Part shown: piece after piece, positions 1-28,692 of the stretch | Layout of the letters: the number at the start of each line of letters is the position of its first letter | Position numbering within the stretch: position 1 is the stretch's first letter | Assembly (NCBI GenBank): GCA_021772075.1 | Contig: JAETNQ010000036.1 | Location: 1 to 34,597, forward strand | Direction of reading: 5' to 3' | Origin: Lachnospiraceae bacterium | Lineage (GTDB): Bacteria; Bacillota; Clostridia; Lachnospirales; Lachnospiraceae | Length of the DNA: 34,597 nt | The notes under the pieces: generated by a model | What the model was told of the DNA's origin: nothing | The model's database searches: none | What the model saw: only the letters and a program-made list of their open reading frames with translations | Position numbers and translations under genes: made by a program

Positions 1-33
1 CACTGTACTTACATAGTCTAAAAGTGCTTTCAT
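1..33 (-). CDS. Start of a minus-strand gene cut by the window edge
   Basis: An open frame starts at the ATG at 33 (reading MKALLDYVSTV) and runs off the window; an in-frame ATG at 45 is also possible. The support is indirect: a good sigma-A-type promoter lies at 59-87 on the same strand and AGGATGG precedes the ATG at 33. Only 11 residues are visible, so no function can be given. The start at 33 leaves a leader of about 19 nt from the predicted transcription start, whereas the start at 45 would leave no room for a ribosome binding site. Confidence 0.35.
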   Translation of the reverse strand, partial: MKALLDYVSTV

Positions 34-58
34 AAACAAATCCATCCTGTTTTCTTTG

Positions 59-87
59 ATTATACCAAAAAATGGATGAAGTGTTCA
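59..87 (-). promoter_or_regulatory. Sigma-A-like promoter for the gene leaving the left edge
   Basis: On the minus strand a perfect TATAAT (59-64), preceded by TGG (extended -10), lies 17 nt from TGAACA (82-87). It sits about 40 bp from the edge of palindrome A1, the same arrangement as at rfbA, rfbB and pgm. Confidence 0.55.
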
Positions 88-127
88 TAATTTATTCATT
101 CATGCGTTTGTCGTGCCTTTTAAGCAC

Positions 128-539
128 GGAAAACAATTTTGCCAGGCCGGAGGCTGGGCAGAAGGAAGAGGGGCGGCGGAAGGAGGGCAGAGGGGAAACG
201 GCTGGGGAAGAACAGTAGGGGAACAGGCTGGGAATGGTTTCACTGCTACCTCGCGTAGGAAAATGAGATTTTCTTAATATTCTGTTCAGAAAACAGCAAT
301 TTGGTGACACGGATGTCACCAAAAGCCCGCCATGAGCCTGGATGGCGAATCGCGGGCGGTTGCGTCCGGTTGATACTGCTTTACTCGGAATATTTAGAAA
401 ATCCATTTCCCGAAGCCGGCACGGTGAAACCATTCCCAGCCTGTTCCCCTACTGTTCTTCCCCAGCCGTTTCCCCTCTGCCCTCCTTCCGCCGCCCCTCT
501 TCCTTCCGCCCAGCCTCCGGCCTGGCAAAATTGTTTTCC
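128..539 (+). repeat. Giant palindrome A1 (family A, conserved core 267-403)
   Basis: The arms 128-243 and 424-539 are complementary over 116 bp with a single mismatch. They enclose a core (267-403) shared with A2 and A3. The core is closed by GATTTTCTTAATATTC pairing with GAATATTTAGAAAATC. It contains a 10-bp hairpin at 300-323 with loop CGGA, then AGCCCGC pairing with GCGGGC, then CGGGCG-GTTG-CGTCCG. The strand given is the sense in which the GGA loop and the core G-U pairs read. The element fills most of the gene-free stretch 34-667, between the 3' end of the phosphoglucomutase gene and the promoter of the edge gene. Reading frames across it are palindrome artefacts. I see nothing else in 540-667. 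Confidence 0.85.
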
Positions 540-2480: not shown

Positions 2481-2789
2481 ATTAGATTTGGGAAGTTTGG
2501 CGGAGAGAAGTATGCGGCAGCATGGGGGTGGCGGAGGCGGGAATTTTCGGCTGAAGCTTCCAATCAGATTTCACTAATGAAATGGGCAAATGTTACGGAA
2601 CCGGTCGGGTCGGAAACGACGGACATCCTGTCCTGCGTTTCCTAAAATTGCCATCCATGGCAATTTTTCCCTGGTGTGTTGTCCATTTCATAAGTAAAAT
2701 TGCTGATTGTACGCAACAGCCGAAAATTCCCGCCTCCGCCACCCCCATGCCGCCGCATACTGCTCCCCGCCAAACTCGCTAAAGCTAAT
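2481..2789 (-). repeat. Giant palindrome B1 (family B)
   Basis: The arms 2481-2553 and 2717-2789 pair with only a few mismatches. The core between them aligns with the core of B2 when reverse-complemented. It contains a hairpin of GGACA and TGTCC (2621-2633, GGA loop on the minus strand), flanked by GGAAACG and CGTTTCC. A second hairpin at 2644-2667 pairs AAAATTGCCA with TGGCAATTTT around TGGA. The core is closed by ATGAAATGG and CCATTTCAT. Strand is given as the GGA sense, opposite to B2. With B2 it fills the 896-bp gene-free stretch 2390-3285; I see nothing in 2790-2904. Confidence 0.8.
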
Positions 2790-2904
2790 GTATCTAAAAA
2801 AACAAGGAAAGAAAATCAGTTATGTATGAAAGCTGTTTACCACCTCAAAAAATTCATTTATGTTGGAGCCTTTTCTGCCAGCACATTTCATCTATATAAC
2901 CAAG

Positions 2905-3249
2905 AAATCCATGGGCGGAGCCGCCCGTCTGCGGCCGGGTGAAAAGGAAGATGCCGGGAGATGGAGCCTCCGAGGGAAGAGCAGTTTTGGGAATGTTGTT
3001 TTCTGTCAGCCATTTTACTTACGAAATGGTTGGATAGCTAGGGAAAAATCGCCATGGATGGCGATTTTAGGAAACATAGGGCAAGGATGCCCTTTGTTTC
3101 CGTCCCGTCCGTTTTTTCAACCCTGCCCATTTCGTTAGTAAAATCTGACAAAAAACTCCATTCCCAAAACTGCTCTTCCCTCGGAGGCCCCTTCTTCCGA
3201 CACTTTCCTTTCCGCCCGGTCGCAGACGGGCGGCTCCGTCCATGGATTT
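2905..3249 (+). repeat. Giant palindrome B2 (family B)
   Basis: The arms 2905-3009 and 3145-3249 pair over about 105 nt with scattered mismatches, many of them G-U type. The core carries a hairpin GGGCA-AGGA-TGCCC (3079-3092) inside GGAAACA and TGTTTCC. A 24-nt hairpin (3045-3068) pairs AAAATCGCCA with TGGCGATTTT around a TGGA loop. The closing helix is ACGAAATGG with CCATTTCGT. At each of these helices B1 has a different base pair, so pairing is kept while sequence changes. The element begins 37 bp beyond the stop of the GT2 gene at 3286 and is inverted relative to B1. Confidence 0.82.
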
Positions 3250-3285
3250 CCTCCATTTACAGAAAGCTCTCCCTTTTCCCCGCTT

Positions 3286-14795: not shown

Positions 14796-14816
14796 TGTCA
14801 ATATCTGCGATTTCTC

Positions 14817-15168
14817 GGGAATCCATTTTTGCGGGTTGCAGACATGGCAGGACAGGAAAAAAGAAGGGCGGCGGCATGGAAAACAGATGGGGAATGGTTT
14901 CGCCGTTGCCCTACGCAGGAAATGAGATTTTCTTAATATTCCGTTCAACAAGCAGCAATTTGGTGACATGGATGTCACCAAAAGTCCGCAATGAGCCTGG
15001 ATGGCGAATCGCGGACGGTTGCGTCCGGCTGGTACAACGACACCGGAATATTTGGAAAATCCATTTTCCGAAGTCGGCACGGCGAAACCATTCCCCATCT
15101 GTTTTCCCTGCCGCCGCCCTTCTTCTTTCCTGTCCTGCCATGTCTGCAACCCGCAAAAATGGATTTCC
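14817..15168 (+). repeat. Giant palindrome A2 (family A, core 14926-15061)
   Basis: The arms 14817-14905 and 15080-15168 pair over 89 nt with three mismatches. The core has the family A closing helix (GATTTTCTTAATATTCCG with CGGAATATTTGGAAAATC), the hairpin GACA-TGGA-TGTC (14959-14982), GTCCGC with GCGGAC, and CGGACG-GTTG-CGTCCG. The 8-mer CTGCGATT occurs just outside both ends (14805-14812 and 15172-15179), which looks like a target duplication. The element lies between the stop of the DUF5722-like gene and the rfbA promoter and fills the gene-free stretch 14702-15196. Confidence 0.85.
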
Positions 15169-15196
15169 GTGCTGCGATTCCCGCCGCCCATAAAAA

Positions 15197-18267: not shown

Positions 18268-18287
18268 TATCCTAAATCAAATACCCA

Positions 18288-18653
18288 GGGAAATCAATTT
18301 CTGCGGGCGGCGGGCAGGGCAGAGCGGGAAAGAAAAAGGGCGGCGGCAGGAAGGAAGGGGAAGCAGATGGGGGATGGCTTCGCCGTTGCCTCACGCAGGG
18401 AAATGAGATTTTCTTAATATTCCGTTCAGAAAACAGCAATTTGATGACAAGGATGTCATCAAAAGTCCGCCATGAGCCTGGATGGCGAATCGCGGACGGT
18501 TGCGTCCGGCTGGTACAGCGATGCCGGAATATTTAGAAAATCCATTTCCCGGAGCCGGCACGGCGAAGCCATCCCCCATCTGCTTCCCCTTCCTTCCTGC
18601 CGCCGCCCTTTTTCTTTCCCGCTCTGCCCGCCGCCCGCAAAAATTGATTTCCC
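18288..18653 (+). repeat. Giant palindrome A3 (family A, core 18407-18542)
   Basis: The arms 18288-18385 and 18561-18653 pair with one mismatch and one extra AGGGC in the left arm. The core hairpin (18440-18463) reads GATGACA-AGGA-TGTCATC; A1 and A2 have GGTGACA with TGTCACC, so both sides changed together. The 8-mer AATACCCA flanks the element (18280-18287 and 18659-18666). It lies between the divergent rfbB and zinc-ribbon genes and is the main content of the gene-free stretch 18204-18834. Confidence 0.86.
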
Positions 18654-18734
18654 TGTCCAATACCCACAAGAATAAATCTTGCCGGGAAAAATCGCGCTTA
18701 TCCATTTTGTCGATGAATTACTACCATTAAGTTA

Positions 18735-27752: not shown

Positions 27753-27797
27753 GGCCGGGTTTTCACATGGATTCCCATATGCTAAAATGATTTCTAC

Positions 27798-27826
27798 TTG
27801 TCATCCCAACAGCAATATGCTATACT
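27798..27826 (+). promoter_or_regulatory. Antitoxin RNA promoter, copy 1
   Basis: TTGTCA (27798-27803), 17-nt spacer, TATACT (27821-27826): a strong sigma-A promoter with no reading frame and ribosome site after it. Confidence 0.8.
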
Positions 27827-27832
27827 ATCCAT

Positions 27833-27930
27833 ACAAAAGGAAAAGCAACCGCCCGCAAAACGGTTGACCTCCCAGCGTGGTTATAAGCCTACTTGTACCG
27901 GGTCAAGTAACAAGGTAGGCTTATTTATTT
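27833..27930 (+). ncRNA. Antisense antitoxin RNA, copy 1
   Basis: The predicted RNA runs from the promoter at 27798-27826 to a hairpin (ATAAGCCTAC with GTAGGCTTAT, 27883-27924) followed by TTTATTT. It is complementary to the 3' end of the toxin mRNA, including its stop codon and terminator, as in TxpA/RatA-type systems. Its own first hairpin, CAACCG with CGGTTG (27846-27866), is the mirror of the toxin mRNA terminator. Confidence 0.72.
27835..27866 (-). terminator. Toxin mRNA terminator, copy 1
   Basis: On the minus strand CAACCG and CGGTTG form a stem followed by CTTTTCCTTTT. It puts the end of the toxin mRNA inside the antitoxin gene. Confidence 0.65.
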
Positions 27931-28020
27931 GCGCTTTTCCCTACTGTCTAAGTAGGCAAGCAGCGCCATCAGGAAGTTACCAGCTAAAAATAACAAACTT
28001 AAAACATGGTATGTATCCAT
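27925..28020 (-). CDS. 31-aa hydrophobic peptide, holin-like type I toxin, copy 1
   Basis: The ATG at 28020 has GGGAGG eight bases upstream and gives 31 residues: a short polar start (MDTYHV), one membrane segment (LSLLFLAGNFLMALLAYL) and a charged tail (DSREKRK). This is the form of small holin-like/TxpA-type toxins of Firmicutes, which insert into the cell membrane. The leader of about 125 nt contains CCTCCC, which can pair with the GGGAGG of the ribosome site, as in known type I toxins with a hidden start. The 3' end overlaps the antisense RNA. The peptide is identical to copy 2, the only codon change being synonymous. Confidence 0.78.
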   Translation of the reverse strand: MDTYHVLSLLFLAGNFLMALLAYLDSREKRK

Positions 28021-28144
28021 CTGCGCCACCTCCCTCTTTCTGTATTTCCTCTGAAGGGATTAATGCCGACTGGCACAGCGGCGATTGCCGCTTCCGAAAG
28101 CCGGGAGGCTGCCACCTTGCAACACGATTGTTTCCTTGCTGACT

Positions 28145-28173
28145 ATTCTACTATATTCCGCTTTTCTAAAAAA
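28145..28173 (-). promoter_or_regulatory. Toxin promoter, copy 1
   Basis: On the minus strand TAGAAT (28145-28150) lies 17 nt from TTTTTT; a TTGTTT lies 3 nt further away (20-nt spacing). Copy 2 has TTGTTT at exactly 17, so copy 1 may be weaker. Confidence 0.45.
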
Positions 28174-28247
28174 CAACGATTCTTCATGTGACATTTAGTC
28201 CAATCCTATTGAAGCAATGGAATTCCATTTTACAAAGTTTTTCTCAC

Positions 28248-28276
28248 TTGTCATCCCAACAACAATATGTTATACT
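28248..28276 (+). promoter_or_regulatory. Antitoxin RNA promoter, copy 2
   Basis: TTGTCA (28248-28253), 17-nt spacer, TATACT (28271-28276), the same boxes as copy 1. Confidence 0.8.
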
Positions 28277-28282
28277 ATCCAT

Positions 28283-28385
28283 ACAAAAGGGAAAACAACC
28301 GTCCGCAAAGCGGTTGACCTCCCGGTTTAGGTATATAAGCCTACCTGAGTACGGTCAAGTAAACAAGGTAGGCTTATTTATTTGC
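28283..28385 (+). ncRNA. Antisense antitoxin RNA, copy 2
   Basis: Runs from the promoter at 28248-28276 to a hairpin (ATAAGCCTACC with GGTAGGCTTAT, ending 28377) and TTTATTT. The terminator loop differs from copy 1 by several bases and a few insertions while the stem is kept, so each RNA may act best on its own toxin mRNA. Confidence 0.72.
28285..28316 (-). terminator. Toxin mRNA terminator, copy 2
   Basis: On the minus strand CAACCG pairs with CGGTTG (28296-28316), followed by TTTTCCCTTTT. Confidence 0.65.
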
Positions 28386-28473
28386 GCTTTTCCCTACTGT
28401 CTAAGTAGGCAAGCAGCGCCATCAGGAAGTTACCAGCTAAAAATAACAAACTCAAAACATGGTATGTATCCAT
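28378..28473 (-). CDS. 31-aa hydrophobic peptide, holin-like type I toxin, copy 2
   Basis: Same 31-residue product as copy 1: polar start, one membrane segment and basic tail, from the ATG at 28473 with GGGAGG eight bases upstream. One codon differs silently (TTG for TTA, Leu7). Amino-acid identity with a drifting antitoxin loop suggests the peptide is under selection or that the duplication is recent. It is too short for standard gene callers and is easily missed. Confidence 0.78.
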   Translation of the reverse strand: MDTYHVLSLLFLAGNFLMALLAYLDSREKRK

Positions 28474-28597
28474 CTGCGCCACCTCCCTCTTTCTGTATTT
28501 CCTCTGAAAGGATTAATGCCGACTGGCACAGCGGCGATTGCCGCTTCCGAAAGCCGGGAGGCTGCCACCTTGCAACACGATTGTTTCCTTGCTGACT

Positions 28598-28626
28598 ATT
28601 CTACTATATTCCGGTTTTCTAAACAA
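28598..28626 (-). promoter_or_regulatory. Toxin promoter, copy 2
   Basis: On the minus strand TTGTTT (28621-28626), 17-nt spacer, TAGAAT (28598-28603). Confidence 0.55.
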
Positions 28627-28692
28627 TAATTATCCATGTGACATTTAGTCCAATCCCGTTTCATAACCATCCTTCCCAACGCTTCCGGCCTC

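What the first reader, a model, noticed from the sequence alone, without database searches (positions are those of the whole stretch)
14817..15168. Family A: three giant palindromes with a conserved, covarying core
A1 (128-539), A2 (14817-15168) and A3 (18288-18653) each have 89-116-nt arms that are near-perfectly self-complementary, around a core of 136-137 nt shared by all. Paired positions in the core change together. GGTGACA with TGTCACC (A1, A2) becomes GATGACA with TGTCATC (A3). GCCCGC with GCGGGC (A1) is GTCCGC with GCGGAC (A2, A3). G-U type pairs in the core (TTCTG with CGGAA in A1, TTTGG with CTTAA in A2, CGGGCG with CGTCCG in A1) work only in plus-strand RNA. Kept pairing with changed sequence suggests selection for an RNA structure. 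I do not recognise it as a named RNA.
Basis: partly seen in the sequence, partly recalled or inferred. Interest (0 to 1): 0.9.

Follow-up and report, generated by a model that had tools for sequence, protein, structure and literature searches.

The report
Mobile palindromes carrying CsrA-type RNA hairpins
The giant palindromes are copies of a scattered, movable DNA repeat whose centre is a known but unexplained RNA (TwoAYGGAY), and the pattern of its changes and of the genomes that carry it suggests that the RNA part binds the regulator CsrA while the long arms are copied from one another as DNA.

Summary
In detail: three huge palindromes share a covarying core. The core has a name: all three, plus two more in the window, are Rfam RF01731 TwoAYGGAY (82-117 bits). 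The genome has 53 hits. They look like a mobile repeat: shared ends (CANGGAAATC type), about 9-bp target duplications (>=8/9 in 10 of 51 copies, 0.27% in controls), and sites without the element in a relative, including A3's. Arm mismatches show no strand preference (G.U 145, A.C 158), and at one shared site both arms changed together in 19 columns: copying at DNA level. The core prefers G.U over A.C (63:26, mostly subfamily B) and keeps GGA in 162 of 164 loops: selection on the folded plus strand. Between tandem genes elements lie sense and antisense alike (20:22), against Rfam's 'cis-reg' label. In a family-wide sample 44 of 46 carriers encode CsrA, against 107 of 252 non-carriers (p=1e-12, phylogeny not controlled); within the genus this is not seen (9 of 12, 3 of 4). 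This supports a published, untested CsrA-binding proposal (PMC4333381). An IS4-family element sits in the GGA hairpin at 15 of 19 ends. The mobilising transposase was not found.

The parts
125..539 (+). Element A1: arms 128-243 and 424-539, RF01731 core 251-418; terminus CACGG at 125. No good target duplication found (3 of 9)
1..115 (-). End of an ISAs1-family insertion sequence (contig edge), separated from A1 by CCTTTTAAG (116-124)
2481..2789 (-). Subfamily-B element: arms 2481-2567 and 2703-2789, RF01731 core 2554-2716
2891..3263 (+). Subfamily-B element, head to head with the previous one: arms 2891-3009 and 3145-3263, core 2997-3157
14814..15171 (+). Element A2 (the finding): arms 14816-14906 and 15079-15169, RF01731 core 14911-15076. 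The same site in Lachnospiraceae bacterium 28-4 holds a subfamily-B element
14805..14813 (.). Left target-site duplication of A2 (CTGCGATTT)
15172..15180 (.). Right target-site duplication of A2 (CTGCGATTC, 8 of 9 identical)
14959..14982 (+). Hairpin H1 of A2 with a GGA loop (TTTGGTGACA TGGA TGTCACCAAA)
   Evidence: alignment; GGA in this loop in 82 of 82 aligned copies
14984..15016 (+). Hairpin H2 of A2 with a GGA loop (GTCCGC ... CCTGGATGG ... GCGGAC)
   Evidence: alignment; GGA in this loop in 80 of 82 aligned copies
18286..18655 (+). Element A3: RF01731 core 18391-18557, arms on either side; the site has no element in Lachnospiraceae bacterium 28-4
18280..18287. Left direct repeat AATACCCA of A3; overlaps the terminus, so off the expected spacing and not counted
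18659..18666 (.). Right direct repeat AATACCCA of A3

Best explanation
Each palindrome is a copy of a short (about 280-480 bp in the two species studied) non-autonomous mobile element: inverted-repeat ends, GC-rich self-complementary arms, and a TwoAYGGAY core. Insertion by an unidentified DDE-type transposase that recognises CANGGAAATC ends and duplicates about 9 bp is inferred; the ends, duplications and empty sites are shown. The arms are kept identical at DNA level, most likely by arm-to-arm copying during replication or repair, so they stay near-perfect while drifting between copies (concerted change shown at one shared site; enzyme unknown). Elements at old sites also appear to be replaced by other copies of the same genome. 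The core is selected as a folded plus strand with two GGA hairpins; most likely it is transcribed and binds a CsrA dimer, so the copies act as dispersed CsrA decoys in trans rather than as leaders of neighbouring genes (transcription and binding not shown).
For: Copies and ends. Empty or replaced sites. Within each subfamily the nearest core is in the same genome for 44 of 44 G000 copies and 25 of 31 G015 copies. Arms: no strand bias; at one shared site 19 columns changed in both arms together, 17 show a one-arm mismatch or other pattern; no correlation of arm identity with duplication quality (rho -0.09, p=0.53). Core: covariation, G.U over A.C, GGA in 162 of 164 loops, private changes 2.9-5.8 per 1000 in P1, P1b and H1 against 17.7 in the internal loop. 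No sense bias. CsrA co-occurrence 44/46 against 107/252; the same 298 genomes give no association with ISAs1 transposase (6/46 against 32/252, p=1, test). CsrA-binding proposal in print: PMC4333381.
Against: No transposase with these ends was found, in an incomplete search. 41 of the 51 copies tested lack a good duplication, A1 and A3 among them. In the genus of the window CsrA does not track the element: 9 of 12 carriers and 3 of 4 non-carriers have CsrA; of the three carriers without a hit two are incomplete (65% and 83%), one is 97% complete. The 298-genome association is not corrected for phylogeny, and CsrA goes with flagella in this group (recalled). The G.U preference is weak in subfamily A alone (24:18). 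In subfamily B the GGA loops have 2 private changes in 222 bases, no fewer than its other helices. Concerted evolution could also lower private mutations in the core. Arms of subfamily B do not cluster by genome as the cores do (15 of 25 G000 copies). No transcript data.
Confidence: 0.58

Rival explanations
1. Plain MITE: the core structure is needed only for movement, for example as a hairpin seen by the transposase, and has no role for the host.
For: Repeat copies with inverted ends and duplications, short derivatives with both ends kept, sites without the element.
Against: Private mutations are rarer in the helices than in the internal loop of the same copies, which a relic would not show; CsrA co-occurrence; a plain MITE needs no changing but near-perfect arms.
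Confidence: 0.25
2. Folded single-stranded DNA element: the plus strand works as a Y-shaped DNA hairpin during replication or transfer, not as RNA.
For: G.T is also better than A.C in DNA, so the strand preference fits; arms are handled at DNA level; an IS4-family element targets the H1 hairpin.
Against: Does not explain the CsrA association or two nearly invariant GGA loops.
Confidence: 0.2
3. Cis-regulatory leader of the neighbouring gene, as Rfam's type says.
For: Rfam type Cis-reg; subfamily A is often in divergent gaps (19 of 38).
Against: Between tandem genes 20 sense and 22 antisense (A 6:13, B 14:9); in the window A2 is antisense to both neighbours; shared sites are empty or hold other copies.
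Confidence: 0.04
4. Two-way transcription terminator or mRNA-end stabiliser.
For: Long hairpins in intergenic gaps; 27 of 31 subfamily-B gaps have at least one gene end (3') facing the element.
Against: Subfamily A is in no convergent gap (0 of 38) and in 19 divergent ones; A1-A3 end inside the stem without a following U-run (sequence); loops and core helices would not need conservation.
Confidence: 0.06

Closest known systems
TwoAYGGAY RNA (Rfam RF01731; Weinberg et al. 2010, PMC2864571, passages)
   Same: Core sequence and structure far above the gathering score (82-117 bits against 43).
   Different: Listed in 2010 as probably an RNA and probably not cis-regulatory. The inverted-repeat ends, long changing arms, target duplications and copy numbers reported here are not in the passages I read.
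CsrA-sequestering sRNAs (CsrB/CsrC, RsmX/Y/Z)
   Same: Paired hairpins with GGA loops; this proposal for TwoAYGGAY is in PMC4333381 (passages).
   Different: Those are ordinary sRNA genes with numerous sites; here two sites per copy, tens of copies, inside a mobile element.
Bacterial MITEs
   Same: Short, no gene of their own, inverted ends, target duplication, many intergenic copies.
   Different: Near whole-length palindrome with arms private to each copy, a structured RNA core, no parent transposon found.
REP/BIME and REPIN elements (PMC1525189 abstract; PMC3116915 and PMC2817692 search listing only)
   Same: Dispersed intergenic palindromes, often as inverted pairs, and hot targets of particular insertion sequences.
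   Different: Several times longer; duplications suggest a DDE-type and not a RAYT-type enzyme (inference; RAYTs not searched); conserved RNA core.

Membership tests
TwoAYGGAY RNA (RF01731) | Covariance-model score above the curated gathering score | tested here: met
   5 of 5 window copies, 82-117 bits against 43
TwoAYGGAY RNA (RF01731) | Two hairpins with GGA in the loop | tested here: met
   H1 82 of 82, H2 80 of 82 aligned copies
MITE | Shared terminal inverted repeats | tested here: met
   CANGGAAATC-type ends recognised on both sides in 51 of the 79 G000 and G015 copies with measured arms
MITE | Target-site duplication | tested here: met
   >=8 of 9 identical in 10 of 51 against 0.27% of mismatched flanks; the other 41 decayed, displaced or absent
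MITE | Insertion polymorphism between relatives | tested here: met
   5 sites without any palindrome and 1 with a lone end among 17 sites with both flanks
MITE | A full-length transposon with the same ends | tested here: inconclusive
   None seen by end pattern, but listings were capped and weak pairs not examined; ISAs1 shares only CACG and about 9 bp of duplication
CsrA-binding sRNA | GGA-loop hairpins in pairs | tested here: met
CsrA-binding sRNA | Host has CsrA | tested here: met
   44 of 46 carriers in the family sample; in the genus only 9 of 12
CsrA-binding sRNA | Is transcribed and binds CsrA | not testable with these tools
   no RNA or binding data
Cis-regulatory leader | Sense orientation upstream of the regulated gene | tested here: not met
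   tandem gaps 20 sense, 22 antisense, p=0.88
REP/BIME | Palindrome of about 20-60 nt tied to a RAYT (recalled) | tested here: not met
   Elements of about 280-480 bp in the two species; RAYT not searched

The most novel reading that the evidence does not exclude
A transposable CsrA decoy: a gene-less mobile element that spreads while carrying a CsrA-binding RNA, so that tens of scattered copies together set the free CsrA of the cell, while arm-to-arm DNA copying gives every copy its own renewed hairpin, and other insertion sequences parasitise its loop and ends.
Probability: 0.35. Interest if true: 0.88.

Novelty: new variant of a known kind. Interest (0 to 1): 0.7.

Why it matters
It turns an orphan Rfam family into a mobile repeat with a testable partner protein. 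It would be a case of a transposable element that carries a regulatory-protein binding RNA through bacterial genomes, and of long palindromes kept near-perfect by DNA copying rather than by selection on RNA pairing. It also warns that covariation in inverted repeats need not mean RNA: arms and core covary here for different reasons, and the G.U against A.C count separates them.

Tried and rejected
Transposase search: end patterns in the own genome (151 places, about 100 listed) and in three relatives (one mismatch), lone ends and small hairpins, inward-facing end pairs in 1.2 Mb of G015 (many pairs with three mismatches were listed and the frames inside them were not examined). No coding element with good ends stood out. 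ISAs1 (PF13808) was tested as mobiliser: 4 of 16 genomes of the genus have it, the copy-rich G015 does not, and it is not associated with carriers in 298 genomes (test). It remains possible only as a local visitor that likes the element's end.

'Arms identical at birth, so arm identity dates the insertion' was considered and rejected: arm identity and duplication quality are unrelated, and arms changed in concert in place at one shared site.

A first gene-context count called some antisense frames, for example beside A3; it was replaced by a codon-usage count (10 of 79 copies dropped for lack of a call on one side). A first loop count by free hairpin search missed most H2 loops and was replaced by alignment columns. 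The raw core counts included columns that are not pairs (A.C 74 against G.U 24 in A); one search keeps only columns with at least half Watson-Crick pairs. The B-core pattern matches both strands of one helix, so its 'close pairs' about 100 bp apart are artefacts; its pairs 1.7 kb apart led to the IS4 copies. The palindrome list was swamped by masked stretches and cut; only rows outside them that were printed were used. No other Rfam family reached its threshold in the window. Paper searches on MITEs in Lachnospiraceae, on MITE plus structured RNA and on CsrA plus transposon gave listings with nothing on this element beyond the 2010 survey.

Full report
What is there. The three palindromes exist as described. 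Rfam 15 names all three, and two further ones in the window, as RF01731 TwoAYGGAY, 82-117 bits against a gathering score of 43. The own genome (3.48 Mb, 103 contigs) has 53 hits. Of 46 hits with enough flank on both sides, 45 have arms of 57 to 154 alignment columns at 84-100% identity. A2 folds as RNA to -252.5 kcal/mol, z = -25, but any near-perfect palindrome would do so.

It is a mobile repeat. Many arms begin with a shared end of the type CANGGAAATCMATTTT, in both subfamilies. For 51 of the 79 G000 and G015 copies with measured arms the end could be recognised on both sides; the other 28 were left out. Of the 51, 10 carry flanking 9-mers with 8 or 9 identities, against 0.27% when left and right flanks of different copies are combined; mean 5.5 against 4.2. 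A looser count over 89 copies gave 16 at score 8 or more against 19 of 1056 controls. A2 has CTGCGATTT and CTGCGATTC. A3 has AATACCCA on both sides, but off the expected spacing, and fails (4 of 9); A1 fails too (3 of 9).

Site comparison. I took 1.2 Mb of it and mapped the flanks of the 53 G000 copies, where present: 17 sites had both flanks there. My reading: five have no palindrome (copies 6, 7, 8, 16 which is A3, and 17); one keeps only a lone end (26); one is rearranged (3); ten hold a palindrome (0, 2, 11, 12, 21, 33, 38, 39, 40, 47; 33 and 47 are a pair in one gap), the one at site 2 without the core. At A2's site (12) and at 40 the other species has the other subfamily at the same position; the same is probable at 0. 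Copies 22 and 67 appear to sit at one site in opposite orientation. Within each subfamily the closest core lies in the same genome for 44 of 44 G000 copies and 25 of 31 G015 copies, which means concerted evolution; arms follow this in A (18 of 19 and 14 of 19) but less in B (15 of 25 and 10 of 12).

Arms against core. If arms were kept as plus-strand RNA, one-sided changes should leave G.U more often than A.C. They do not: 145 against 158 over 89 copies, p=0.49. Median identity between the two arms of one copy is 0.95 (A) and 0.96 (B), while the median best arm match to any other copy is 0.72 and 0.63. At five shared sites arms of the two species are 43-56% identical, near the mean between any two copies of different genomes (0.53-0.56). 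At copy 33 and its counterpart in 28-4 arms are still alignable: of 89 ungapped columns 53 are unchanged, 19 changed in both arms together, 17 show a mismatch in one species or another pattern; a 5-nt length difference is shared by both arms. Compensating point mutations would hardly give the same length change twice, so copying from arm to arm as DNA is the simplest reading. Arm identity does not track duplication quality (rho -0.09, p=0.53).

The core behaves otherwise. An alignment of 33 of the 97 held cores, from three genera, predicts 16 pairs, 14 with changes on both sides. In columns that are mostly Watson-Crick, G.U exceeds A.C 63 to 26 by cells and 29 to 11 by distinct column types (p=0.006); this differs from the arms (Fisher p=0.0002 by cells, 0.004 by types). 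Most of it comes from B (39:8); A alone is 24:18. Related copies are not independent. GGA is present in H1 of 82 of 82 and in H2 of 80 of 82 copies. 53 of 93 full-length cores hold ACANGGATGT and 10 hold ACARGGATGT, the heart of the CsrA consensus RUACARGGAUGU (recalled; the string is in 17 papers, listing only). Changes private to one copy run at 17.7 per 1000 bases in the internal loop, 8.1 at the core edge, 3.8 in P1, 2.9 in P1b and the junction, 5.8 in H1, 9.2 in H2, 4.1 in the GGA loops (0 of 270 in A, 2 of 222 in B); the arm rate is 21.5 by a different measure. Selection on the folded plus strand of standing copies fits; exchange among copies may contribute.

What it works like. PMC4333381 (passages read) proposed from motif matches that TwoAYGGAY binds CsrA, unverified. 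I tested the partner: in 298 genomes of the family (90% complete or more) 46 carry the element (44 above the curated cut-off; only nine candidates a genome were scored, so weak carriers may be missed) and 151 have CsrA; 44 of 46 carriers have it against 107 of 252 others, odds ratio 30, p=1.2e-12. The two exceptions have a single hit each. As a control, ISAs1 transposase is at 6 of 46 and 32 of 252, p=1 (test). Against it: in the genus 9 of 12 carriers and 3 of 4 non-carriers have CsrA, the test ignores phylogeny, and CsrA in this group goes with flagella (recalled). Position speaks against a leader role: between tandem genes 20 sense, 22 antisense, p=0.88 (A 6:13, B 14:9); A lies in 19 divergent, 19 tandem and 0 convergent gaps, B in 4, 23 and 4 (69 of 79 copies had gene calls on both sides). 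So I favour trans-acting CsrA decoys carried by a mobile element. Shown: repeat, ends, duplications, sites without it, covariation, strand preference, co-occurrence. Inferred: transposase, transcription, binding, benefit to host.

Other elements that use it. In 28-4 an IS4-family insertion sequence (NCBIfam NF033592, 175 bits) has 19 ends; 15 lie in the H1 hairpin of a subfamily-B element (P1 helix found within 200 nt by script, hairpin read by eye), with a 10-11 bp duplication of the CCNTCCATGG type where both sides were read. Its ends were not found in the five other genomes searched, the own one included. In the own genome an ISAs1-family element (NF033564, 332 bits) has 13 ends with flank; 4 abut an element end at 0-10 bp (one of them a core-less small hairpin), all among the 6 ends on the transposase-start side, none among 7 on the other; in G001 such an end lies 9 bp from an end-like sequence with no core identified. 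This resembles insertion sequences that target REP palindromes (PMC1525189, abstract). Pairs of elements within 1.5 kb in the listings (the last two capped) are head to head in 10 of 12 (p=4e-5 if the four arrangements were equal; count made by eye, probability).

In print. The library holds 7 papers with the word TwoAYGGAY (5 listed), 4 with RF01731, and 2 with both TwoAYGGAY and CsrA. I read passages of PMC2864571, PMC11701678, PMC7657543, PMC4333381 and PMC11661157; none of these passages speaks of a mobile element. Most subscription papers are not held, and the 2017 survey of new RNAs (recalled) could not be opened.

Noticed in passing
L188:3853-5442 and L242-L260 (Lachnospiraceae bacterium 28-4): IS4-family insertion sequence inserted in the H1 GGA hairpin of TwoAYGGAY elements at 15 of 19 ends.
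   Followed up: yes
window 1-124; L148, L149, L150; L140:170-230: ISAs1-family insertion sequence ends lie 0-10 bp from element ends at 4 of 13 ends in the own genome, each time with the transposase-start side towards the element.
   Followed up: partly
L086 (C48:91404-91571), L089 (C17:22421-22577), L088, L087: Short derivatives with both element ends but most of the inside missing; the C17 one has its own direct repeat CATAAAAAT.
   Followed up: partly
L161:2500-3000 (G013), L164 reverse strand (G002): At A2's site two other species carry large palindromes of a different family (CCTCAAGGAGCC ... GGCGACGGAGGA), so the gap may be a hot spot for palindromic elements.
   Followed up: no
G015 C2 221892-222157, 279916-280267, 447293-447484, 501007-501237, 691503-691676 (L186, L188, L189, L197, L200, L209): Palindromes with 50-112 bp arms but no TwoAYGGAY core by my pattern; the last lies at the site of G000 copy 2 and has a 26-nt loop.
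   Followed up: no
window 27767-28656: Tandem duplication of about 450 bp (268 nt at 98%, 119 nt at 81%), no link to the palindromes seen.
   Followed up: no
G000 C95:26733 and C79:28831: The window's genome has two CsrA hits, one divergent (63 bits); the 11 other genomes of the genus with a hit have one each.
   Followed up: no
listings: Neighbouring elements within 1.5 kb are head to head in 10 of 12 cases; no explanation found.
   Followed up: partly
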